This document shows, piece by piece, positions 14,946-28,743 of a DNA stretch of 64,000 nt; within the stretch, counting starts at the first letter, position 1, and each line of letters starts with the position of its first letter. The position numbers were made by a program, and so were the translations under genes. Where the stretch lies: assembly GCF_027912675.1 (NCBI RefSeq), contig NZ_CP115757.1, positions 1,116,001 through 1,180,000 of the forward strand, read 5' to 3'. Under the pieces are notes generated by a model that saw nothing but the letters and a program-made list of their open reading frames with translations, ran no database searches and was not told where the DNA came from. The stretch is from Paracoccus sp. SCSIO 75233. Its GTDB lineage: Bacteria > Pseudomonadota > Alphaproteobacteria > Rhodobacterales > Rhodobacteraceae.

Positions 14946-19381
<4,436 letters not shown>

Positions 19382-19452
19382 ATGTTCTCTAAAAGTTCTT
19401 GCCGAATCGCGTTCGATGTGAGAACAAAGAGGCAACTCTAAGGGAGATTGCC

Positions 19453-19590
19453 ATGACTGACGCCGTAAAATCCGTTCTGACGTCCGAAAATACCTCGCTC
19501 CGCGAACTTGCTGCGGATGCGCTTGGGGTGATCGCGATCTCGGTTTCGACCGTGGCGATGCTCTGGCTTCCTGCGATTTTGTCTGCCTGA
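19453..19590 (+). CDS. 45-aa small membrane protein, unknown
   Basis: I do not recognise a named family. The 45 residues have a polar N-terminal half with charged helix SLRELAADALG and a single hydrophobic segment of about 18 residues (VIAISVSTVAMLWLPAIL). An AAGGGAG ribosome-binding site sits 6 nt upstream and a strong intrinsic terminator follows 40 bp after the stop. That argues for a genuine, separately transcribed small gene rather than chance. Likely an inner-membrane peptide; function unknown. Confidence 0.65.
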   Translation: MTDAVKSVLTSENTSLRELAADALGVIAISVSTVAMLWLPAILSA

Positions 19591-19629
19591 CCTGTTCCGT
19601 GACGGCTCCCCGGCCCCGGAAAGGTTCCT

Positions 19630-19667
19630 GCGGGTGGTGCGGCCCCGGCCCATCACCCGCTTTTTTA
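19630..19667 (+). terminator. Rho-independent terminator after the 45-aa gene
   Basis: A 10-bp stem with one G-U pair, GCGGGTGGTG (19630-19639) against CATCACCCGC (19651-19660), an 11-nt loop, then six T residues. It ends the recG/small-gene transcript. Confidence 0.85.
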
Positions 19668-19828
19668 TTTGCCGTGTGAAATGAGTTTTTTTGACAGGGA
19701 GGGTTTTGGCTTTTCGACTTATGCGTCCGCCGCTGGTTGCGGGTCTGGTGATTGATCCGCGTCTGGACATTCGCGCCGGTATCGGCGTTGCTGTGCGCAA
19801 AGGGTAACGAGTTATACGGGGCAGCAAG

Positions 19829-21373
19829 GTGGACGGAAAAAGCGTCACCGGCATTCATCATGTCACCGCGATCACGCGCGATGTGCAGCGGAATGTCGAT
19901 TTCTATGCCGGGTTTCTTGGGCTGCGGCTGGTCAAGCAGACCGGCGGTTTTGAGGACGGCGCGCAGCTGCATCTGATCTATGGGGATCAACTGGGCAGCC
20001 CGGGTTCGCTGATCACGTTTCTGGTATGGCAGCATGGCGCACCGGGTCGCGTCGGGCTGGGCCAGATCAGCGAGATCGGTTTTGCCGTGCCGCCGGACAG
20101 TATCGGCGAGTGGCTGCAAAAGGCGATGTCGGCAGGGGTGTCCGTCGATGGCCCGAAAAAGGAACTGGGCGAGACGGTTTTGCGGCTGCGCGATCCTGAC
20201 GGGATTATCGTGAAGCTGATCGGGATCGATCTGCCTGCCGCCGCAGCACTACCCGATATGCAGGCCCTGCGTCGCATCCGCTCGGTCACCATCTTGACGG
20301 CGGATGCCGAAGCGACGGCTGAATTTGCGGCCCGGTTCGGTTATCGCCGGGTTGCGCAGGACGGGCCGTTCACGCGAATGGCCTCAGATACGGATGTGAT
20401 CGACCTGCGCCAATCCGCCGGTTTTGTGGACGGCGCACCGGGAACGGGGGTGTTCGATCATGTCGCCTTTCGCGCGCCTGATGTGGATGCGGTACGGCAG
20501 ATGCGGCTGGACCTGCGGGATCATGACGGCGTGACTAATGTGCATGACCGCAAATATTTCCTGTCGCTTTACGTTCGCGAACCGGCGGGGACGCTGTTCG
20601 AATATGCCACGGACGGGCCCGGCATGACGGTCGATGAGGCGGCGGAGGATCTTGGCCAGACCCTGATGATTCCGCCCGCCGATGCAGCCCGCGCCGATGA
20701 TCTGCGGGTGATCCTGCCGCAATTCGCCCTGCCCGGAGAGGAGAGATGGCCGATGCGCGATCTGCAATTCATACACCGTTTTCACCGGCCCGACGATGCC
20801 GATGGCTCGGTCATCGTGCTGATGCATGGCACTGGCGGCGACGAAACCGATCTGATGCCGCTGGCGCATCGCGCCGCGCCACGCGCCACGCTGTTGGGCG
20901 TGCGGGGACGTTCGACGGAAGAAGGGATCAACCGCTGGTTCCGCCGTTATGACGCTGTCACCTACGATCAGGCCGATATCCTGGCGGAGGCGGCTGCATT
21001 TGCCGCATTCATGGGGGATGCGATCCGTGGATATGGGCTCGACGCGGCGCGGATCACCCATCTGGGCTATTCGAACGGCGCGAACCTGTTGGGCGCGGTC
21101 ATGCGCCTGCACCCCGATGCAGTCAGCCGGGCGATCATGCTGCGCGGGATCGAGATATTGGAGGACGCACCGTCTTCGGCGCTTTCCGGCAAACAGGCGC
21201 TGATCCTGACCGGGGCGCGTGATCCGTTTGCGCGCATGGCACCGGCGCTTGAAACCTCGCTTCGCAAGTCTGGGGTCGATCTGGATGCGCGGGTTATCGC
21301 GGCAGGGCATGAACTCGCGGCGGAGGATCTGTCAGCCGTTGAGGCTTGGCTGAGCGCGCATGAAAATCGCTGA
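19829..21373 (+). CDS. fusion: ring-cleaving-dioxygenase-type VOC protein + phospholipase/carboxylesterase-type hydrolase
   Basis: 514 aa, GTG start. Residues 6-275 are two vicinal-oxygen-chelate modules of the MhqO type, with likely metal ligands His11 (GIHHVT), His211 (FDHVAF) and Glu258 (TLFEYATDGPG). Residues about 305-514 are an MhqD/YtpP-like alpha/beta hydrolase: oxyanion loop MHGTGGDETDL, nucleophile Ser415 in LGYSNGA, Asp465 in TGARDPF and His494 in AAGHEL. All catalytic residues of both halves are present. In Bacillus subtilis MhqO and MhqD are separate products of a quinone-induced operon. An in-frame ATG at 20753 with GGAGAGGAG upstream could start a free hydrolase. It heads the quinone-detoxification gene set and has no close upstream partner. 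Confidence 0.88.
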   Translation: MDGKSVTGIHHVTAITRDVQRNVDFYAGFLGLRLVKQTGGFEDGAQLHLIYGDQLGSPGSLITFLVWQHGAPGRVGLGQISEIGFAVPPDSIGEWLQKAMSAGVSVDGPKKELGETVLRLRDPDGIIVKLIGIDLPAAAALPDMQALRRIRSVTILTADAEATAEFAARFGYRRVAQDGPFTRMASDTDVIDLRQSAGFVDGAPGTGVFDHVAFRAPDVDAVRQMRLDLRDHDGVTNVHDRKYFLSLYVREPAGTLFEYATDGPGMTVDEAAEDLGQTLMIPPADAARADDLRVILPQFALPGEERWPMRDLQFIHRFHRPDDADGSVIVLMHGTGGDETDLMPLAHRAAPRATLLGVRGRSTEEGINRWFRRYDAVTYDQADILAEAAAFAAFMGDAIRGYGLDAARITHLGYSNGANLLGAVMRLHPDAVSRAIMLRGIEILEDAPSSALSGKQALILTGARDPFARMAPALETSLRKSGVDLDARVIAAGHELAAEDLSAVEAWLSAHENR

Positions 21374-21418
21374 GCGGAAAGGCGGCGGCGCGATCCGCCG
21401 CCTTTCCTGTCGTCTCAC

Positions 21419-22279
21419 TTACAGCTTGCCGAAGCGGCCTGCGTTGAAATCCGTGATGGCCTGACGGATTTCGGCTTCGGTGTTCATGACGAACGGCCCA
21501 TAAGCCGCGACCGGCTCATCAATCGGTTCGCCGGAGAGGATCAGCAGCTTGGCATCGGACGCGGCTGCGACGGTGAACTCGCCCCCGTCGCGTGACAGCA
21601 GCGCGGTCGAGGCGTCGGAGAGCTTTGTTTCACCATTCACCGTGACCTTGCCACTCAGGACAACCACCGTCACGTTATGACCGTCGACCGGATGCAGCGT
21701 GACCGACTTGCCGGGGTTCAGGCGCAGATCCCAGACGTCGATCGGGGTGAAGGTCTTCGCGGGCCCTTCCGTGTTGTCGAACGAACCGGCGATGACCCGC
21801 ATTTGCCCGGCGTCATCCGGCAGGGGAACCGACGGGATCTCGCCATCGGGGATACCCTGATAGCCCGGCTCGGCGGATTTGTCCCTGGCGGGCAGGTTGA
21901 CCCAAAGCTGCACCATCTCGAAATTGCCGCCGGTCGCGGTAAAATCATGGCTGTGGAATTCTTTATGCAGAATGCCGCTGCCCGCTGTCATCCACTGCAC
22001 GTCGCCCTTGCGGATCACGCCGCCGCGACCTGTGGAATCGCCGTGCTCGACCTCGCCGTCATAAACGATGGTGACGGTTTCAAAGCCCTTATGCGGGTGA
22101 ACATCGACGCCGCGCGGCATGTCCGCCGGTTCGAACTGATATGGCCCGCCATAATCGAGCAGCAGGAACGGCGAATGCCCGTTGCCGCCGCCCATATGTG
22201 AAAACAGCGAACGGACCGGGAAGCCGTCACCGACCCAATGGGCCTGCGGCGCGGTGCTGGTAGAGAGGATCTGACGCAT
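21419..22279 (-). CDS. pirin family protein (quercetinase-like bicupin)
   Basis: 286 aa. Bacterial pirins are Fe-dependent cupins; some (E. coli YhhW) have quercetin 2,3-dioxygenase activity. The metal ligands are intact: HPHKGFETVT gives two His, and GSGILHKEF supplies the third His and the Glu. The C-terminal cupin (HNVTVVVLSGKVTVNGE) and PFVMNTEAEIRQAITDF ending are typical. The ATG at 22279 has CAGGAG 7 nt upstream. It is divergent from the FMN reductase gene; the 211-bp spacer contains a palindrome shared with the LysR regulator's promoter. Confidence 0.93.
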   Translation of the reverse strand: MRQILSTSTAPQAHWVGDGFPVRSLFSHMGGGNGHSPFLLLDYGGPYQFEPADMPRGVDVHPHKGFETVTIVYDGEVEHGDSTGRGGVIRKGDVQWMTAGSGILHKEFHSHDFTATGGNFEMVQLWVNLPARDKSAEPGYQGIPDGEIPSVPLPDDAGQMRVIAGSFDNTEGPAKTFTPIDVWDLRLNPGKSVTLHPVDGHNVTVVVLSGKVTVNGETKLSDASTALLSRDGGEFTVAAASDAKLLILSGEPIDEPVAAYGPFVMNTEAEIRQAITDFNAGRFGKL

Positions 22280-22362
22280 CGGAAAACTCCTGACATTATG
22301 GGGCGGGTTGCCGCCGTTGCCAGAAAGGTTGGGACGGCATGGCCTGACGGCAAGGTTTAATC

Positions 22363-22384
22363 CGTTCGGCAAAACAGAACGCCG
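22363..22384. promoter_or_regulatory. candidate LysR-type operator between pirin and FMN reductase
   Basis: Inverted repeat CGTTC (22363-22367) and GAACG (22377-22381) separated by 9 bp, extended on the right to GAACGCCG and on the left to CGTTCGG. The same arms and spacing occur at 26917-26935 in front of the LysR gene of this locus, where the arms are longer. Both lie between divergent genes. The shared regulator is inferred. Confidence 0.6.
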
Positions 22385-22490
22385 CATTACCAATTCCGGT
22401 TCTGGCGCTTCCGGCGTGGGATGCGCAGTCTGTTACCCGGAACAACCGCGCGACTGATCCGTTATGGTCGCGACAGACAAGGAGCATGTT

Positions 22491-23081
22491 ATGAGTAAAC
22501 CGAAAATCGGCATTATCATCAGTTCGACCCGCGACACACGCTTTGCGGACAAACCGGCGCAATGGCTGCTGGAAAACGCCCGTCAGCGCGACGATCTGGA
22601 GTTTGAATTGCTCGATCTTCGCGATTTCGATCTGCCGTTCTTCAATGAGCCTGCCTCCAATAACTGGATGCCGTCGCAGGACCCGAACGCGGTCAAATGG
22701 CAAGAAACGCTGGCCGGTTTCGATGGGTTCATCTTCCTTGTCGCGGAATATAACCACTCCATCACCGGGCCGCTGAAAAACGCGCTGGATCAGGCTTACA
22801 AGGAATGGATCCGCAAACCGGCAGCGGCTATGGGCTATGGCGGGGTCGGTGCTGCGCGCGCGGTCGAGCATCTGCGCAACATCGCGGTCGAGCTGCAGAT
22901 GGTGCCGCTGCGCAATGCGGTCCATCTCGGCGGCGGCGAGTTCATGAAGGTCAGCCCGCTGGGCCAGAATGGCGAGATGGCCGAGGTTCATGATGTGCTG
23001 AAACCGTCGCTGGACGCGATGCTGGATGAGCTGGCATGGTGGACCGACGCGACCAGGACGGCGCGGGCGAAAACCGCGTAA
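22491..23081 (+). CDS. NADPH-dependent FMN reductase (azo/quinone-reductase type flavoprotein)
   Basis: 196 aa flavodoxin-like protein. The FMN-phosphate loop SSTRDTRFADKPA, the NNWMPSQDPN region and AEYNHSITGPLKNALDQAY are the NADPH-dependent FMN reductase signature, shared with ChrR/AzoR-like two-electron quinone and azo reductases. Two-electron reduction avoids semiquinone formation, fitting the neighbouring genes. The ATG at 22491 follows AAGGAG; the frame is open 9 codons further upstream. A terminator-like hairpin separates it from doxX. Confidence 0.9.
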   Translation: MSKPKIGIIISSTRDTRFADKPAQWLLENARQRDDLEFELLDLRDFDLPFFNEPASNNWMPSQDPNAVKWQETLAGFDGFIFLVAEYNHSITGPLKNALDQAYKEWIRKPAAAMGYGGVGAARAVEHLRNIAVELQMVPLRNAVHLGGGEFMKVSPLGQNGEMAEVHDVLKPSLDAMLDELAWWTDATRTARAKTA

Positions 23082-23090
23082 CTCTGTCAG

Positions 23091-23113
23091 GGCGGTCCTT
23101 TGGGCCGCCTTTT
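23091..23113 (+). terminator. terminator or attenuator between FMN reductase and doxX
   Basis: Stem GGCGGTCC (23091-23098) with GGGCCGCC (23102-23109), one G-U pair and a TTT loop, followed by TTTT. doxX starts only 20 bp later, so partial read-through would be needed if the genes are cotranscribed. Confidence 0.65.
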
Positions 23114-23133
23114 CTCCATCACGGGAGTTGAGA

Positions 23134-23706
23134 ATGAGCCGCTATGACCGTCACCAGACCCGACTGATCCTGCCCTTTATGGGGCCGTTTTACGAAAATT
23201 TCGCCAAGCCGCTGGCCCATCTCGGGCTGCGGGTCGTCGTCGGCGTGATGCTGATGATGGAGGGGTGGCCGAAGATCGTGGCGCCGTTCGCGCAGGCCGG
23301 GTTTACCGAAAGCCTCGGCTTCTATCCCGGCTGGTTCTGGTCGGCGGCGCTGGCGGTGATGCAATTCGTCGGTGGGCTGATGATCGTGGTGGGTTTTCTG
23401 ACCCGGCCGGTGGTGCTGGCGAATGCGGTCATGCTGGCGGTGACGCTGTGGTTTCATGTGACCCATCCTTACGGCGATGTTTTCCTGTCGCCTGAAGGGA
23501 TGCAGACGCTGTCCGAAAATGCCGCACTGTTCAGCGAGGCCGGCTTGGCCAATCTGCGGGCCGATGGCGGGGCGCTGTTCCTGGCGCAGGTGCAGTCCAA
23601 GGCCGAGGATCTGTCATTGTTGTGGACGGTCGCGGCGCTGTTCCTCGCGGCGTTCGGGGCCGGTCCGATCTCTGTCGATCGCACGATATTGAAACGGGAG
23701 TTCTAG
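23134..23706 (+). CDS. DoxX family membrane protein
   Basis: 190 aa with four hydrophobic segments (about residues 28-48, 66-88, 92-112 and 160-178). The DoxX pattern includes LGLRVVVGVMLMMEGWPKI and FWSAALAVMQFVGGLMIVVGFLTRP. DoxX proteins such as MhqP in B. subtilis and YqjF in E. coli sit beside quinone-detoxification enzymes; their exact activity is unsettled, with quinol oxidase or membrane redox roles proposed. The ATG at 23134 is preceded by GGGAG. The acetyltransferase gene starts 1 bp after its stop. Confidence 0.88.
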   Translation: MSRYDRHQTRLILPFMGPFYENFAKPLAHLGLRVVVGVMLMMEGWPKIVAPFAQAGFTESLGFYPGWFWSAALAVMQFVGGLMIVVGFLTRPVVLANAVMLAVTLWFHVTHPYGDVFLSPEGMQTLSENAALFSEAGLANLRADGGALFLAQVQSKAEDLSLLWTVAALFLAAFGAGPISVDRTILKREF

Positions 23707-23707
23707 C

Positions 23708-24022
23708 ATGTCCGAGATCAAGATTTCCAAGGAAGATGACGGCAAGCGGGGCCGCTATGTCGCCGTGATCGACGGCGTCGAAGGGGAGGGGGAGATCACA
23801 TGGACCCGCCCCGGCCCCGACCTCATCAGCGCGAACCACACCGGCGTACCGGACAGCATGGCCGGGCAGGGCGTCGCGAAAGCAATGCTGGATTTCATGC
23901 TGGACGACGCGCGGGCGAACGGTTTCCGCATTATCCCCGTCTGCCCGTTCATCGCGAAACAATATGCGAAACATCCTGAATGGTCGGGTAGTTTCGCGGC
24001 GAAACCCAAGGCGAAAGGCTGA
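23708..24022 (+). CDS. small GNAT-fold N-acetyltransferase (NATD1/YidJ type)
   Basis: 104 aa, a minimal GNAT with only the core acetyl-CoA-binding unit. The acetyl-CoA loop is represented by SANHTGVPDSMAGQGVAKAMLDFMLDDAR, and the family-typical end is GFRIIPVCPFIAKQYAKHPEW. The substrate is unknown. It sits 1 bp after doxX and 2 bp before the hydroquinone reductase, so it is cotranscribed with both. A role in acetylating a small electrophile-derived metabolite is possible but unsupported. Confidence 0.88.
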   Translation: MSEIKISKEDDGKRGRYVAVIDGVEGEGEITWTRPGPDLISANHTGVPDSMAGQGVAKAMLDFMLDDARANGFRIIPVCPFIAKQYAKHPEWSGSFAAKPKAKG

Positions 24023-24024
24023 AT

Positions 24025-24999
24025 ATGGGCCAGCTTATCGACGGCGAATGGCACGACCAGTGGTATGACACGAAAAGCACCGGCGGGCGGTTCAAGCGCA
24101 CGACGACGGCGTGGCGCAACTGGATCACGGCGGATGGCAGCGCGGGCCCCTCGGGCGAGGGCGGGTTCGCGGCGGAGAGCGGGCGCTATCACCTCTATGT
24201 TTGCCTCGCCTGTCCCTGGGCGCATCGGGCGCTGATCTTTCGGGCGATCAAGGGGCTGACGCCGCATATTTCGGTGTCGGTCGTGCATCCCGACATGCTG
24301 ACGGAGGGGTGGGAGTTTCGTAGCGATTATCCCGGTGCGACCGGCGACGATCTGTTCGGTGCGAAATATCTGCGCGACATCTATCTGCGCGCGGACCCGA
24401 AAGCCTCGGGCCGGGTGACGGTGCCGGTGCTGTGGGACAAGGCGCGCGATACGATTGTCAGCAATGAAAGTGCAGAGATCATCCGCATGTTCAACTCGGC
24501 CTTCAACGGGCTGACCGGGAACGAGGATGATTATTACCCGGAGGCGCTGCGCGACCGTATCAACGAGGTGAATGACCGCGTCTATGACACGGTGAATAAC
24601 GGCGTCTACAAGGCCGGTTTTGCCACCTCGCAGGAGGCCTATGACGAGGCGGTCGGGCCGTTATTTGACAGCCTCGACTGGCTGGAGGGGCTGCTGGCAG
24701 AGAACCGCTACCTGACCGGCGACCGGCTGACGGAGGCTGACTGGCGTCTGTTCACGACCGCGCTGCGCTTCGATCCGGTTTATCACACGCATTTCAAATG
24801 CAACCGGGCGTGGCTCAGGGAATACCCGAACCTCTGGGGCTGGACGCGAGAACTTTACCAGTTCCCCGGCGTCGCGGAGACGGTGAATTTCGACCATATC
24901 GTGCGTCATTATCACTACAGCCATGAGACGATTAACCCGCACCGGATCATCCCGATCAACCCGGTGATAGACTGGGACGCGCCGCACGGGCGTGGCTAG
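24025..24999 (+). CDS. glutathionyl-hydroquinone reductase (GST xi class, YqjG/PcpF type)
   Basis: 324 aa. These enzymes reduce glutathionyl-hydroquinones to hydroquinones using GSH, salvaging quinone-glutathione adducts. The catalytic Cys63 is in the class-defining LACPWAHRALI motif. Other signatures are VVHPDM, NESAEIIRMFNSAFN, EVNDRVYDTVNNGVYKAGFA, and a C-terminal HYHYSHETINPHRIIP. In E. coli yqjG lies next to yqjF (DoxX); the same pairing is seen here. It is the last gene of the doxX-GNAT-GHR run and is followed by a bidirectional terminator. Confidence 0.95.
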   Translation: MGQLIDGEWHDQWYDTKSTGGRFKRTTTAWRNWITADGSAGPSGEGGFAAESGRYHLYVCLACPWAHRALIFRAIKGLTPHISVSVVHPDMLTEGWEFRSDYPGATGDDLFGAKYLRDIYLRADPKASGRVTVPVLWDKARDTIVSNESAEIIRMFNSAFNGLTGNEDDYYPEALRDRINEVNDRVYDTVNNGVYKAGFATSQEAYDEAVGPLFDSLDWLEGLLAENRYLTGDRLTEADWRLFTTALRFDPVYHTHFKCNRAWLREYPNLWGWTRELYQFPGVAETVNFDHIVRHYHYSHETINPHRIIPINPVIDWDAPHGRG

Positions 25000-25018
25000 G
25001 CGGCGGTTCTGCGCATCG

Positions 25019-25052
25019 AAAAGGGCGGCTCCCGGCACGGGGCCGCCCTTTT
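25019..25052. terminator. bidirectional terminator between convergent genes
   Basis: Perfect 11-bp stem, AAAAGGGCGGC (25019-25029) against GCCGCCCTTTT (25042-25052), with A and T tracts on both sides. It can end the hydroquinone reductase transcript on + and the CatE-like VOC transcript on -. Confidence 0.92.
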
Positions 25053-25068
25053 GCTGTTCATGGCCGGA

Positions 25069-25848
25069 TCATGCGGCTTTCAGAATGAACCCGGTCCCGT
25101 CGGGGTCGGTGATGCGGGCTGACGACAACCCGCTTTCCGGCGTGACCGTCAGTCCGATTTCGGCCAGCCCGATGGACGGGAACCGGCGCGGTCCCGCACC
25201 CCGGCTGTTCCAGGTATTCGCTGCAAGCTGGTGGTGGTAACCACCCGATCCGAACCACGCCCCGCCTTGCCCGACCAGCGTTTCGGTCAGGCCGAGTTGC
25301 CCGGTCGCGAAGTCCCGCGCCGCCGACAGCTCGGAGGTGGAAAGATGCACATGACCAACCTTGCTTCCGTCCGGCATTCCCATCCAGGGACCGTGACCGG
25401 CGGCAAGCACGCCCTCGACATCCATCCGCTCGGTGATCATATGCACCTTGTCACCGTCGCGCTGCCAGCTGCTTTCCGGGCGGTCGATATAGATTTCGAT
25501 GCCGTTGCCTTCCGGGTCGGACAGATACACCGCCTCGCTGACGGCGTGATCGGATGCGCCGGAGAGTTGCTGTCCGGTCTCCGCCGCGTGGCGCAGCCAG
25601 CGACCGAGATCGCCGCGTTCGGGCATCAGAAACGCCGTGTGAAACAGCCCGGCCGCATTGCGTGGCGGGCGCGGCGCGTGGCGGTCCGCGCGCAGTTCGA
25701 GGAGCGTCCGACCGCCCGCCCCAAGGGTGGCGGTCTCGCCATCCCCGGTCAGCGGCGTCAGGCCGATGATATTGGCGTAGAAATCGCGCATCCCGGTCAG
25801 ATCGTTCACGGTCAGCGCGACATAGGAGATTTCGACTGGATAGGTCAT
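25069..25848 (-). CDS. VOC family protein, catechol 2,3-dioxygenase-like (CatE/MhqE type)
   Basis: 259 aa with two VOC modules. Module one has GLFHTAFLMP and DPEGNGIEIYIDRPESSWQRDG; module two has VGHVHLST and GGYHHQLAANTWNSRG, the motif set I know from B. subtilis CatE-like extradiol dioxygenases, which open catechol or hydroquinone rings. Metal-binding His residues of module two are present. It is downstream of the larger MhqO-like gene on the same strand, with a 49-bp gap that contains a GC-rich hairpin. Confidence 0.88.
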   Translation of the reverse strand: MTYPVEISYVALTVNDLTGMRDFYANIIGLTPLTGDGETATLGAGGRTLLELRADRHAPRPPRNAAGLFHTAFLMPERGDLGRWLRHAAETGQQLSGASDHAVSEAVYLSDPEGNGIEIYIDRPESSWQRDGDKVHMITERMDVEGVLAAGHGPWMGMPDGSKVGHVHLSTSELSAARDFATGQLGLTETLVGQGGAWFGSGGYHHQLAANTWNSRGAGPRRFPSIGLAEIGLTVTPESGLSSARITDPDGTGFILKAA

Positions 25849-25867
25849 TGTGTTCTCGCCTTGTTAT

Positions 25868-25890
25868 GCGGGGCAGCAGGGCCGCCCCGC
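25868..25890 (-). other. GC-rich hairpin between two VOC genes
   Basis: Perfect 7-bp arms GCGGGGC (25868-25874) and GCCCCGC (25884-25890) with a 9-nt loop and no T tract. More likely an mRNA stabiliser or attenuator between the two genes than a terminator. Confidence 0.45.
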
Positions 25891-25897
25891 GTGATGT

Positions 25898-26839
25898 TCA
25901 GACCAGCGGTTTCAGACCGGCCTCGATCTGCGCGCGGCGCGGTTCGAGGAAGGGGGGCAGGGACAGCGCCTCGCCCATTGTGTCGAACGGCTCATCGACG
26001 TCGAAGCCGGGCCCGTCCGTCGCGATCTCGAACAGGTTGCCGCCGGGTTCGCGAAAATAGAGGCTGCGGAAATAATAACGCTCCACCTCGCCCGAACTCG
26101 GGATACGGAACTGGTTCAGCCGCTCGGCCCATTGATGGATGGTTTGCACATCCGGGGTGCGGAAGGCGACGTGGTGAACACCGCCAGCGCCCTGGCGCGC
26201 GACCGGCAGGCCGGGCTGGACGGCGACATGCAGTTCCGCCGCCGGGCCGCCTGCGCCCATCTCATAGACATGCACCTGACCAGAGCCGTCGGGGCTGGGA
26301 TAATCCCGCACCTTGCGCATATTCATGACGCGGGTCAGCACCGCCTCGGTCAGTTCCAGTTCCGGCACGGAAATGGTGATCGGGCCGAGGCCACGGATCT
26401 GGTGTTCCGCCGGAACCGGGCTGCGATCCCAGGGGTGGGTCTCGCCGGGCTGGTCGGCGGTCAGGCGGATGCGCTGCCCCTCCGGGTCTTCGAAATCGAG
26501 CGTCGCGCGGGTGTCGAGCGTCGTGATCTCGCCCGTTTTCACGCCCTGATCGCGCAGGCGGGCGGCCCAGTAATCAAGGCTTGCCTCGTTCACGCGCAGC
26601 CCGGTGCGGCTGATCGAATGGGTGCCGCGACGCTCGGGCGCTGCGGGCCAGTCGAAGAAGGTGATGTCGGTGCCCGGACTGCCCGCGCCATCGGCGAAGA
26701 ACAGGTGATAGGCGGATGTGTCGTCCTGATTGACGGTTTTCTTGACCCGGCGCAGCCCGAGCGTGTCGGTGTAGAAGCGGTTATTGCCGGGTGCGTCGGC
26801 GGTGATCGCCGTCAGGTGATGAATGCCGGTAAGGTCCAT
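25898..26839 (-). CDS. ring-cleaving dioxygenase, VOC family (MhqA/MhqO type)
   Basis: 313 aa, two VOC modules. Metal ligands expected for the family are His8 (GIHHLT), His223 (GVHHVAF) and Glu271 ([12 protein letters not shown]). Members protect against hydroquinone and catecholic electrophiles. The ATG at 26839 has AAAGGAGG 6 nt upstream, which fixes the start. It is divergent from the LysR gene and resembles the N-terminal half of the fusion protein at 19829 closely along its whole length, so the locus carries two paralogues of this module. Confidence 0.92.
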
Positions 26840-26913
26840 ATTGGCCTCCTTTGTTCTGTTGGACACAATATCAGACGGAGAACCCGTTTCCGCCAGCAGT
26901 AAGCTGACGAAAT

Positions 26914-26938
26914 CGGCGTTCGGGAATTGCGAACGCCG
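26914..26938. promoter_or_regulatory. palindromic operator in the LysR/dioxygenase divergent promoter
   Basis: Perfect 9-bp inverted repeat: CGGCGTTCG (26914-26922) and CGAACGCCG (26930-26938), 7-bp spacer. It contains a T-N11-A core typical of LysR-type binding sites. It lies 22 bp before the regulator's ATG and 75 bp before the dioxygenase ATG, which fits autorepression plus activation of the divergent gene. Confidence 0.72.
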
Positions 26939-26960
26939 AGGGAGGCGCTATCATCCCGCC

Positions 26961-27881
26961 ATGCGTTATGACCTCGACCAGATCGAAACCTTTCTGACCG
27001 TGATGGAGCTTGGCACGCTGACCGCGGCGGCGGCGCGGCTGAACCTGTCGAAATCAGTGGTGTCGAAGCGGATCTCCGATTTTGAAGCGGTCGTCGGCGC
27101 GGCATTGTTTCGCCGGAACGCGGGCCGGATCACCCCGACGGAAGCAGCAGGACGGCTTGCCGAACGCCTGCGCCCTGCGCTGAGCGATCTGATTGCGGCA
27201 GCTGAAAGCGCAAGCTGGGGGATGGACGGTGCCGCGCCCTTGCAGGGGCAGTTGGCGATTGCGGTGCCGATCAGTTTCGGCACGGTTTATCTGAACCCGG
27301 TGCTGGCCCGTTTTGCGATTGCGCACCCGCAGCTTGAAATGCGCATAGATTATGACGACCGGGTCCGCGATCTGGCGCGGGAGGGGTTCGATCTGGGCAT
27401 CCGCATCGGGGAGGCGCGCGACGGCGCGCTGAAGGCGCGCAAGCTGTGTGAGGATCGATCATATCTGGTCGCCAGCCGCGATTATCTGGACCGCTACGGG
27501 GTGCCGAAGACGCCTGCCGATCTGTCCGGTCATCAGATCATCGGCTACAGCCATGTCTCCAATACGCAGGTCTGGCAGTTTTTATGTGACGGAAAGACGG
27601 TTTCGCCGCAGGTCGGCGGGCGGCTGACGCTGAATAATGGCGAGGCGATCCGGGATATGGCGGTCGCGGGGCTCGGGGTGGCGATGTTGCCCGGTTTCAT
27701 CGCCCGTCGCGCGGTTGAGGAGGGGCAACTTGTCGAGTTGCTGAGCCATGCGGAAAGCCGTCGCCTGCCGATCATGGCGGTCTGGCCCCCGGTGAGCCCG
27801 ATGCCGGTAAAGCTGCGGCTTATCATAGATTTTCTGGTGGCGGAACTTGCCGGGGGGCTGTCAGAGTCAAAAAGGCCATAA
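26961..27881 (+). CDS. LysR family transcriptional regulator of the quinone locus
   Basis: 306 aa. The winged HTH is N-terminal (residues 4-61: IETFLTVMELGTLTAAAARLNLSKSVVSKRISDFE), followed by the two-lobed effector domain from about residue 88 (QLAIAVPISFGTVYLNPVLARF). The DLGIRIGEARDGALKARKL and GLGVAMLPGFIARRAV segments fit the CrgA/DmlR-type branch. Divergent orientation to a VOC dioxygenase and the palindrome between them point to local control. In E. coli the LysR protein YhaJ plays a comparable part beside yqjF-yqjG and yhaK. The inducer is probably an aromatic electrophile (inference). Confidence 0.9.
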   Translation: MRYDLDQIETFLTVMELGTLTAAAARLNLSKSVVSKRISDFEAVVGAALFRRNAGRITPTEAAGRLAERLRPALSDLIAAAESASWGMDGAAPLQGQLAIAVPISFGTVYLNPVLARFAIAHPQLEMRIDYDDRVRDLAREGFDLGIRIGEARDGALKARKLCEDRSYLVASRDYLDRYGVPKTPADLSGHQIIGYSHVSNTQVWQFLCDGKTVSPQVGGRLTLNNGEAIRDMAVAGLGVAMLPGFIARRAVEEGQLVELLSHAESRRLPIMAVWPPVSPMPVKLRLIIDFLVAELAGGLSESKRP

Positions 27882-27939
27882 TTTTGCTGCACCTTATGAT
27901 CCGGCTTATTGCCGATTCAGGCGTCAAATCGAGATTGGG

Positions 27940-27954
27940 CCGTTTTGAAAACGG
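27940..27954. repeat. 15-bp palindrome downstream of the LysR gene
   Basis: CCGTTTT and AAAACGG around a single G. Too tight for an RNA hairpin and without a T tract; it could be a protein-binding site. The surrounding 27882-28089 spacer is A+T-richer than its neighbours. Confidence 0.35.
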
Positions 27955-27984
27955 TATTCGCAAAAGAAAAATAATTCTACTTCA

Positions 27985-28060
27985 GGTGGATAGCGGGTAA
28001 GGCGGCTATGTACCCCCGGTTGGGGTTGAGAATCCGGCTGTGATGGCTCATCTATCCACC
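27985..28060. other. structured intergenic element closed by a 9-bp inverted repeat
   Basis: GGTGGATAG (27985-27993) pairs perfectly with CTATCCACC (28052-28060), enclosing 58 nt that contain a further ACCCC/GGGGT hairpin. It lies just upstream of the sulfotransferase-like gene and could be a folded leader, a small RNA or a mobile-repeat remnant. Confidence 0.35.
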
Positions 28061-28089
28061 CCATTAAAAGAGGTTTGTCAGGTTCCCGG

Positions 28090-28743
28090 ATGAAAAGCAT
28101 CCAAGTCGGCTTCGCTATTGTAGGCCATCCGCGTTGCGGGAGCAGATCGCTGGCAACGGCCTTCGGCCAGCTTGGTCTGAAAGTTGGGCATGAGAAGCTT
28201 GAGCGGGATGGGATCGTGTCCTGGTGGAACACAGCGCGTTATCAGGGCGATCACTCATTCAAGGATCCGAGGCTTTATCCTTCAGAGTTCACATCGCGGG
28301 TGATTGGCCACTATATCCGCAACCCGATCGATGCGATCCCTTCGATCCTGATCGAGAACCAGTTCCGCGAACGCAAGAACAACTCCTACCAGTTCCGGCA
28401 ATGGATCCTCAGCAAGGAATTCGATGTCGATCTGGATGAGATGTCGCCGCTGACGGCGGCGGCGACCTCTTTCGTGCTGTGGAACGATCTTGCCGCCAAG
28501 ATTTCGGATCTCGATCAACCCATTCTTGTCGAGCGGCCAGATACCCGGCAGTTGCAGGCGATGCTGGGCGGTGCGCTGCCCTTTACCGGCAAGGAAATCA
28601 AATTGCCGCGCGAGAATACGACCGCCCGGAAATTCGGCGTCGATAAATGGGAGACAAGCCGGGAAGATATTATCGACGCCACCCCGGAAGCGTTTCGGCC
28701 AAGGCTGGACTATTATCTGTCGCTCTACGATTTCCTGATGTGA
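28090..28743 (+). CDS. sulfotransferase-like protein, unknown substrate
   Basis: 217 aa. The N-terminal FAIVGHPRCGSRSLATAF resembles the PAPS 5'-phosphosulfate-binding P-loop of sulfotransferases (PRxGSxxL), and YIRNPIDAIPSILIENQFRERK resembles the 3'-phosphate-binding region with its Arg and Ser. The rest does not match a family I can name. Start taken at the ATG 28090; the upstream ribosome-binding site is weak, and a TTG at 28075 is an alternative. It stands alone, with a structured spacer before it and nudC 46 bp after it. Codon use is somewhat less GC-rich than in nearby genes, so acquisition by transfer is possible. Confidence 0.55.
   Translation: MKSIQVGFAIVGHPRCGSRSLATAFGQLGLKVGHEKLERDGIVSWWNTARYQGDHSFKDPRLYPSEFTSRVIGHYIRNPIDAIPSILIENQFRERKNNSYQFRQWILSKEFDVDLDEMSPLTAAATSFVLWNDLAAKISDLDQPILVERPDTRQLQAMLGGALPFTGKEIKLPRENTTARKFGVDKWETSREDIIDATPEAFRPRLDYYLSLYDFLM

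What the first reader, a model, noticed from the sequence alone, without database searches (positions are those of the whole stretch)
19829..27881. A compact quinone/electrophile-detoxification island built from VOC dioxygenases, pirin, flavin reductase, DoxX, hydroquinone reductase and a LysR regulator
Eight adjacent genes can each be tied, by family, to quinone, catechol or hydroquinone handling: an MhqO-MhqD-like fusion, pirin, FMN reductase, DoxX, glutathionyl-hydroquinone reductase, a CatE-like and an MhqO-like VOC protein, and LysR, plus a minimal acetyltransferase. The Mhq-type proteins are known from the B. subtilis mhq system; DoxX, hydroquinone reductase, LysR and pirin are neighbours in E. 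coli (yqjF-yqjG ... yhaJ-yhaK). This window joins both toolkits under one local regulator. The combined system is inferred.
Basis: partly seen in the sequence, partly recalled or inferred. Interest (0 to 1): 0.75.

Follow-up and report, generated by a model that had tools for sequence, protein, structure and literature searches.

The report
LysR-run quinone detoxification gene island
In a Paracoccus-like bacterium, nine neighbouring genes of kinds used to disarm toxic quinones carry two copies of a probable DNA switch for the cluster's own LysR regulator, and related genomes suggest that this regulator has gathered such enzymes around it piece by piece.

Summary
The whole set is unique: LysR, fusion, CatE-like and GS-HQR lie within 12 kb in 1 of 125 genus genomes. 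Its parts are still linked: LysR-fusion within 12 kb in 64 of 96 genomes with both, CatE-LysR within 6 kb in 39 of 81, GS-HQR-LysR within 12 kb in 10 of 100. MhqO is divergent beside LysR in 55 of 60 fetched neighbourhoods.

A palindrome, GTTCG-N7-CGAAC, sits between mhqO and lysR. Its matrix finds one other strong site in the 64-kb window, in the pirin/FMN-reductase promoter. It precedes 30 of 35 FMN-reductase orthologs. In a chosen sample, fusion promoters carry it in 34 of 37 loci with a LysR ortholog and 2 of 23 without.

Limits: the window's own fusion has no good box; a hairpin separates FMN reductase from DoxX-GNAT-GS-HQR; binding and quinone sensing are inferred. Among E. coli counterparts only GS-HQR is close (66%). 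A new variant of a known kind (quinone-response regulon).

The parts
19829..21373 (+). VOC (MhqO/MhqE-like) plus MhqD-like alpha/beta-hydrolase fusion protein, 514 aa
   Evidence: 3oaj MhqO 162.9 bits over 4-304; 3b5e 164.9 bits over 309-509; both active sites nearly invariant
19708..19732 (.). degenerate, probably non-functional copy of the LysR box upstream of the fusion (score 2.6)
21384..21402 (+). terminator-like hairpin between the convergent fusion and pirin genes
21419..22279 (-). pirin family protein, 286 aa
   Evidence: 7te5, 375 bits
22360..22384 (.). predicted LysR box 2 in the pirin/FMN-reductase divergent promoter (score 22.1; best hit outside the island in the window 9.8)
22491..23081 (+). 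NADPH-dependent FMN reductase family, probable quinone reductase, 196 aa
   Evidence: best 1t0i, yeast YLR011w, 51.6 bits
23091..23113 (+). GC hairpin (-14.3 kcal/mol) with T run after FMN reductase; seen by eye at the same place in five relatives
   Evidence: not listed by the scan
23134..23706 (+). DoxX family membrane protein, 190 aa
23708..24022 (+). minimal GNAT (Acetyltransf_CG), 104 aa, 1 bp after DoxX
24025..24999 (+). glutathionyl-hydroquinone reductase, 66% identical to E. coli YqjG, 2 bp after GNAT
25069..25848 (-). CatE-like two-domain VOC protein, 259 aa, 49 bp after MhqO on the same strand
25898..26839 (-). MhqO-like VOC ring-cleaving dioxygenase family, 313 aa
   Evidence: 1zsw 259 bits, 3oaj 173 bits, 4huz 111 bits; H8, H223 and E271 in 76 of 76
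26914..26938 (.). predicted LysR box 1 in the mhqO/lysR divergent promoter
26961..27881 (+). LysR-type regulator, 306 aa
   Evidence: best 3hhg, 125.7 bits; C163 present in 75 of 78 orthologs

Best explanation
The island is one genome's compact version of a LysR-controlled electrophile/quinone detoxification regulon of Paracoccus-like bacteria.

Shown by sequence: the LysR gene is divergent from mhqO with a GTTCG-N7-CGAAC palindrome between them; the same palindrome lies in the pirin/FMN-reductase promoter; in relatives it precedes FMN reductase, pirin, many fusion genes (directly, or before a GST or second pirin next to the fusion) and some GS-HQR genes; in the sample tested it goes with the presence of the LysR gene.

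Inferred: LysR binds this box. An electrophilic quinone, or its thiol adduct, alters LysR, perhaps at the near-invariant Cys163. FMN reductase then reduces quinones to hydroquinones. GS-HQR strips glutathione from hydroquinone adducts. The VOC proteins cleave the rings or adducts, and the esterase half hydrolyses the product. DoxX and pirin play supporting roles.

DoxX-GNAT-GS-HQR is probably expressed by read-through of the hairpin behind FMN reductase.
For: LINKAGE (own genome counted). LysR-fusion within 12 kb in 64 of 96 genus genomes with both; CatE-LysR within 6 kb in 39 of 81; GS-HQR-LysR within 12 kb in 10 of 100; chance about 0.6% for 12 kb. In 120 family genomes, the LysR ortholog (57% or more; one 41% hit set aside) occurs in 7, and all 7 hold the fusion on the same contig within about 12 kb.

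BOX. Exact TTCG-N7-CGAA in 77 of 88 mhqO-lysR intergenic regions. A matrix from 71 distinct sites scores the pirin/FMN-reductase site at 22.1, against 9.8 for the best hit outside the island; the same without the window's own site. Score 12 or more within 300 bp upstream: FMN reductase 30 of 35, pirin 6 of 8 (partly the same sites), and 89 of 93 for mhqO, where the matrix was trained. Background: 19 such hits in 1.57 Mb.

BOX AND REGULATOR. Fusion genes carry it within 1 kb in 34 of 37 loci with a LysR ortholog, against 2 of 23 without; Fisher 5.5e-11.

GS-HQR. 6 of 7 GS-HQRs in LysR neighbourhoods of relatives lie behind a box scoring 12 or more, as do 3 of 20 further genus copies, against 0 of 90 family copies.

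LITERATURE. P. fluorescens facing R. solani induces hydrolases, quercetinases/pirin, azoreductases, GS-HQR YqjG and DoxX together (PMC5557065, section 9 read).
Against: No expression, binding or phenotype data. The window's own fusion has only a degenerate box (2.6). No box of 12 or more precedes DoxX (0 of 7) or the CatE-like gene (0 of 8), so they would depend on upstream promoters. A hairpin sits between FMN reductase and DoxX-GNAT-GS-HQR here, and in 3 of the 6 boxed GS-HQR neighbourhoods of relatives (L214, L217, L220). 17 of 20 further genus GS-HQRs have no box, among them four copies within 20 kb of LysR or near the fusion (G156, G184, G202, G207).

Box-regulator test: the 27 genomes were chosen by hand, 20 of 47 loci without local LysR were not tested (10 of them have a box), two loci have a box though no ortholog was found (L164, L165, both MAGs), the identity cut (48% against 39%) was set after seeing the hits, and related genomes are not independent.

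In the own genome, strict box matches inside open frames elsewhere score 22.3 and 16.8, so sites of that strength do occur by chance. A 4-hydroxybenzoate hydroxylase gene lies near the fusion in 4 of 81 loci, which hints at aromatic catabolism there. The ligand is inferred from enzyme families alone.
Confidence: 0.68

Rival explanations
1. A LysR regulon as described, but the signal is another electrophile or xenobiotic (nitroaromatics, flavonoids, methylglyoxal-like aldehydes), with quinones only incidental.
For: VOC, pirin (quercetinase family), GST, GNAT and isochorismatase members are compatible with many substrates. In E. coli, YhaJ responds to DNT and nitroaromatics as well as hydroquinone and catechol (PMC5031710 passages). 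The CatE-like protein has only a weak solved relative.
Against: GS-HQR (66% to YqjG) and MhqO belong to families tied to hydroquinones, and the first is found repeatedly behind the box.
Confidence: 0.2
2. A catabolic cluster that uses hydroquinones, catechols or related aromatics as growth substrates, with the VOC proteins as the ring-cleaving step.
For: MhqO matches 4huz, a 2,6-dichloro-p-hydroquinone 1,2-dioxygenase, at 111 bits. A 4-hydroxybenzoate 3-monooxygenase gene (TIGR02360, 676 bits) lies near the fusion in 4 of 81 loci. A LysR next to a ring-cleaving gene is common in aromatic catabolism (general knowledge).
Against: None of the island's nine genes is a ring hydroxylase, maleylacetate reductase or beta-ketoadipate enzyme. 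The commonest neighbours in relatives are GST, second pirin, FMN reductases, GNAT and DoxX; the smaller clusters were not all identified.
Confidence: 0.08
3. Coincidental neighbours: stress genes of large families that happen to be adjacent.
For: LysR, fusion, CatE-like and GS-HQR together occur in no other of 125 genus genomes; GS-HQR and DoxX are mostly elsewhere.
Against: Linkage far above chance and shared boxes.
Confidence: 0.04

Closest known systems
B. subtilis / S. aureus MhqR and YodB/QsrR quinone regulons (mhqED, mhqNOP, catDE, azoR)
   Same: Same enzyme kinds: VOC dioxygenases, MhqD esterase, quinone reductases (PMC6798810 passages); DoxX in mhqNOP/catDE is recalled, not from a call. 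One operator shared across several promoters (same passages).
   Different: The regulator is a LysR, not MarR/DUF24. MhqD-like esterase and a VOC are fused in one protein. GS-HQR is glutathione-based, whereas the Firmicutes use bacillithiol.
E. coli YhaJ regulon with yqjFG, yhaK
   Same: A LysR with T-N11-A boxes beside GS-HQR, DoxX and pirin-like genes; YqjG 66% identical.
   Different: The LysR is 23% identical, DoxX 29%, and YhaK has no BLASTP hit to this pirin. The boxes differ: TCA-N7-TGA there, GTTCG-N7-CGAAC here. No VOC or fusion gene is annotated in that E. coli stretch.
CrgA-mdaB of Neisseria meningitidis
   Same: Best solved relative of this LysR (3hhg, 125.7 bits; the name CrgA is recalled). 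CrgA binds T-N11-A at the crgA/mdaB promoter (PMC6422896 passages). mdaB as a quinone reductase is recalled.
   Different: The divergent target here is a VOC dioxygenase, with further enzymes attached; pilus or capsule control was not looked for.

Membership tests
LysR-type divergon (LTTR) | HTH_1 and LysR_substrate domains | tested here: met
   61.2 and 142.6 bits, above cut-off
LysR-type divergon (LTTR) | target gene divergent and adjacent, with a T-N11-A palindrome between | tested here: met
   55 of 60; 77 of 88
LysR-type divergon (LTTR) | regulator binds the box | not testable with these tools
   co-occurrence only
MhqR/YodB quinone regulon | MarR or DUF24 repressor | tested here: not met
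   the local regulator is a LysR
MhqR/YodB quinone regulon | MhqD/MhqE/MhqO-type enzymes | tested here: met
   the MhqD model is below its curated cut-off, so a relative rather than an equivalog
MhqR/YodB quinone regulon | induction by quinones | not testable with these tools
   no expression data at hand
E. coli YhaJ regulon | YhaJ ortholog | tested here: not met
   23% identity, E 1e-4
E. coli YhaJ regulon | YqjG ortholog in the locus | tested here: met
   66% over 323 residues
Glutathionyl-hydroquinone reductase | full-length match to YqjG with the CPWA cysteine | tested here: met
   alignment; the role of the cysteine is recalled

The most novel reading that the evidence does not exclude
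Paracoccus-like bacteria use a CrgA-like LysR as their quinone sensor and control a scattered, shuffling regulon through one box. GS-HQR, an otherwise housekeeping glutathione enzyme, has been drawn into this regulon several separate times, by relocation into the island or by gaining the box in place. In this genome the regulon has condensed into a nine-gene island.
Probability: 0.5. Interest if true: 0.62.

Novelty: new variant of a known kind. Interest (0 to 1): 0.48.

Why it matters
It gives a testable regulator, box and gene list for quinone/electrophile defence in a group where my searches found none described: mhqO + LysR 0 papers; LysR + quinone + DoxX + pirin 0; Paracoccus + LysR + quinone + ring-cleaving dioxygenase 1, a Pseudomonas genome comparison seen only in the listing; GS-HQR + regulon + DoxX 0; LysR + Rhodobacter + quinone stress 0. 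The library is open-licence PMC only. It also shows what looks like a regulon being assembled: the same enzymes sit behind one box in different arrangements in related genomes, and the glutathione-based and Mhq-type tool sets meet under one regulator. The VOC-esterase fusion offers an enzyme whose two halves probably act in sequence.

Tried and rejected
Conservation of the whole set around GS-HQR: rejected; 97 neighbourhoods fetched (best copy per genome), none with the set. The first tblastn used wrong frames for FMN reductase and LysR and was redone.

YhaJ orthology of the LysR: rejected. A box for the window's own fusion: looked for in 1 kb upstream, best score 2.6. A box for DoxX and the CatE-like gene: none at 12 or more in 7 and 8 orthologs.

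Other boxes in the own genome: a strict pattern gave six places, two in the island (7 rows, one palindrome read on both strands; the control pattern gave 8 rows). The other four lie within long open frames, scores 22.3, 16.8, 13.1 and 9.3, so no further promoter was added. An Rfam scan of 19000-28500 found nothing at gathering scores.

Counts and drops. One search used one best hit per genome from the tool listings, own genome included; the fusion list has 100 of 101 genomes (G226, 35% identical, left out); fragments were kept; the CatE-like hits are 46-64% identical apart from the own gene, so orthology is loose. Of 106 other genus LysR neighbourhoods, 60 were fetched; 57 are the top-ranked ones and 3 the next group, so the CatE count (4 of 60) is biased low, and one search corrects it. 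Of 47 fusion loci without a local LysR, 27 genomes were searched. The 88 intergenic regions hold some genomes twice (73 distinct, 64 of them with the exact palindrome). The notes say 78 of 88; the recount is 77.

The catabolic rival went from 0.06 to 0.08 and the main reading from 0.70 to 0.68 for that reason. The MhqO ligand numbers were corrected to H8, H223, E271.
Full report
WHAT IS THERE. The stretch 19829-27881 holds nine genes. A forward VOC-esterase fusion runs up to a convergent pirin, with a terminator-like hairpin between them. Pirin and FMN reductase start from a shared divergent promoter. FMN reductase is followed by DoxX, a small GNAT and glutathionyl-hydroquinone reductase (GS-HQR); DoxX-GNAT and GNAT-GS-HQR are 1 and 2 bp apart. 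On the other strand come an MhqO-like VOC protein and, 49 bp behind it, a CatE-like VOC protein. MhqO is divergent from a LysR regulator. The window lies in a 3.9-Mb genome. Its genus in the genome set includes G023, whose 1,354,226-base contig matches in length the Paracoccus sanguinis contig behind L140, so I call it Paracoccus-like.

PROTEINS. The fusion matches B. subtilis MhqO (3oaj, 162.9 bits) over its first 300 residues and an esterase (3b5e, 164.9 bits) over the rest. The residues read as the VOC metal ligands (H11, H211, E258) and the esterase triad (S415, D465, H494) are identical in 91-92 of 92 aligned sequences. MhqO is closest to 1zsw (259 bits), then MhqO 3oaj (173) and 4huz (111); its H8, H223 and E271 are identical in 76 of 76. 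GS-HQR is 66% identical to E. coli YqjG. FMN reductase is closest to 1t0i, yeast YLR011w (recalled as the quinone reductase Lot6p). LysR is closest to 3hhg (recalled as CrgA). The CatE-like protein has only a weak solved relative.

CONSERVATION. GS-HQR occurs in 98 of 120 family genomes. I fetched the neighbourhood of the best copy in the 97 other genomes (up to 8 kb each side where contigs allowed). The 90 with a GS-HQR of at least 60% identity have none of the eight other island genes at ortholog level, only a few 31-36% paralogs. The 7 more distant ones include three with a 48-55% CatE-like neighbour. The LysR ortholog (57% or more; a 41% hit in G074 set aside) occurs in 7 of 120, each time with the fusion on the same contig within about 12 kb. 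Within the genus (125 genomes) LysR is in 107, GS-HQR in 115 and the fusion in 101 (E up to 1e-60), CatE-like in 98 and DoxX in 13 (E up to 1e-40).

Linkage in genus genomes that hold both genes, own genome counted: LysR-fusion within 12 kb 64 of 96; CatE-LysR within 6 kb 39 of 81; CatE-fusion within 6 kb 34 of 81; GS-HQR-LysR within 12 kb 10 of 100; GS-HQR-fusion within 12 kb 6 of 92; DoxX-fusion within 12 kb 4 of 13; DoxX-LysR within 12 kb 2 of 13. The chance value for 12 kb is about 0.6%. LysR, fusion, CatE-like and GS-HQR together occur only in this genome. In 60 fetched LysR neighbourhoods, MhqO is present in 55 (in each divergent and adjacent), the fusion in 28, FMN reductase in 21, GNAT in 10, GS-HQR in 7, CatE-like in 4, pirin in 1, DoxX in 1. 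So there is a LysR-MhqO core around which a pool of detoxification genes shuffles. In the window and the 80 best fusion loci of the named collection (80 kept of 339 candidates), the commonest further neighbours are a second pirin, a GST and a second FMN reductase (types from one representative each). A 4-hydroxybenzoate 3-monooxygenase gene is near the fusion in 4 of these 81 loci.

THE SWITCH. The mhqO-lysR intergenic region holds a palindrome; the exact form TTCG-N7-CGAA is present in 77 of 88 regions. A matrix from 71 distinct sites, scanned over the 64-kb window, gives 31.5 for the window's own training site, 22.1 for 22360-22384 in the pirin/FMN-reductase promoter, and 9.8 as the best hit outside the island. 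Leaving out the window's own site changes nothing. In the loci, a score of 12 or more within 300 bp upstream occurs for mhqO in 89 of 93 (training region), FMN reductase 30 of 35 (23 of 27 distinct sites), pirin 6 of 8 (partly the FMN-reductase sites), fusion 30 of 109, GNAT 3 of 26, GS-HQR 3 of 99, DoxX 0 of 7 and CatE-like 0 of 8. The background is 19 such hits in 1.57 Mb of loci without the island. In the island set (2.67 Mb) there are 185 distinct hits: 132 upstream of island genes, of which 76 are at mhqO or lysR and thus mostly training sites; of the other 53, by the residues listed, 13 lie before a GST and 3 before a second pirin.

Two tests tie box to regulator. First, fusion loci with LysR in the locus (50% or more) have the box within 1 kb upstream in 30 of 33. 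Of 47 other loci I chose 27 by hand and searched their genomes: 4 have an ortholog of 48% or more (3 elsewhere in the genome, L189 a 48% copy in the locus) and all 4 have the box; 23 have none (best hits up to 39%) and 2 have the box, both MAGs. Pooled, 34 of 37 against 2 of 23, Fisher 5.5e-11. The 20 untested loci have a box in 10. Related genomes are not independent, so the Fisher value overstates the strength. Second, GS-HQR: in the 7 LysR neighbourhoods of relatives that hold it, a box of 12 or more precedes the gene or its upstream partner in 6, and one of 10.5 in the seventh. The arrangements differ: box-GS-HQR-fusion, box-FMN reductase-GNAT-GS-HQR (with the hairpin between), box-GNAT-GS-HQR. 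Of 20 further genus copies, 3 have a box of 24 or more (G171, G181, G214, where LysR is on another contig or over 400 kb away); 17 have none, including four that lie within 20 kb of LysR or near the fusion. Of 90 family copies, none has one.

In the own genome a strict form of the box occurs at six places, and only the two in the island are between genes; the other four are inside open frames, with scores up to 22.3. The control pattern found as many rows, so the count itself is not informative; the positions are.

HOW IT PROBABLY WORKS. Shown: gene content, linkage, boxes. Inferred: LysR binds the boxes; an electrophile changes it, perhaps at Cys163, present in 75 of 78 orthologs; transcription of mhqO-catE and of pirin and FMN reductase rises. 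A GC hairpin with T run follows FMN reductase here and, by eye, in five relatives (L135, L140=L246, L214, L217, L220), not clearly in L157, so DoxX-GNAT-GS-HQR probably receives a read-through share. The window's fusion has no recognisable box (2.6), and its control is open. Enzyme roles follow from families: reduction of quinones, removal of glutathione from adducts, ring cleavage, ester hydrolysis.

COMPARISON WITH THE KNOWN. Firmicutes run the same kinds of enzymes under MarR/DUF24 repressors (PMC6798810, passages). E. coli YhaJ is a LysR responding to hydroquinone and catechol with TCA-N7-TGA boxes (PMC5031710, passages), but it is only 23% identical here. CrgA binds T-N11-A at crgA/mdaB (PMC6422896, passages). 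In P. fluorescens meeting R. solani, hydrolases, quercetinases/pirin, azoreductases, GS-HQR YqjG and DoxX are co-induced (PMC5557065, section 9 read), which fits co-use of this kit in another proteobacterium but names neither the signal nor the regulator.

VERDICT. Observation confirmed; interpretation partly supported and sharpened. The block is not conserved, but a single-regulator regulon with a predicted operator is well supported by sequence. New variant of a known kind.

Noticed in passing
23091-23113; L135, L140=L246, L214, L217, L220: A terminator-like GC hairpin plus T run directly after FMN reductase, in front of DoxX or GNAT, recurs in relatives; it may act as an attenuator.
   Followed up: partly
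L183:9224, L174:9201, L156:9284 and similar: The LysR box lies before a GST gene that precedes the fusion in many Paracoccus, and before a second pirin divergent from the fusion in others; neither gene is next to the fusion in the window.
   Followed up: partly
L147:4941-6143 and the same cluster in L148, L171, L204: A 4-hydroxybenzoate 3-monooxygenase gene (TIGR02360, 676 bits for L147) near the fusion in 4 of 81 loci.
   Followed up: partly
19453-19590 (+): A 45-codon open frame with a hydrophobic C-terminal half between recG and the fusion.
   Followed up: no
L277, L278, L283 (upstream of GS-HQR in G171, G181, G214): Strong LysR boxes before GS-HQR genes that lie on another contig or over 400 kb from LysR, suggesting regulon membership in trans.
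   Followed up: partly
L127, L130, L131: A different, 50-54% identical GS-HQR sits beside a CatE-like VOC gene in three other genera, without the island.
   Followed up: no
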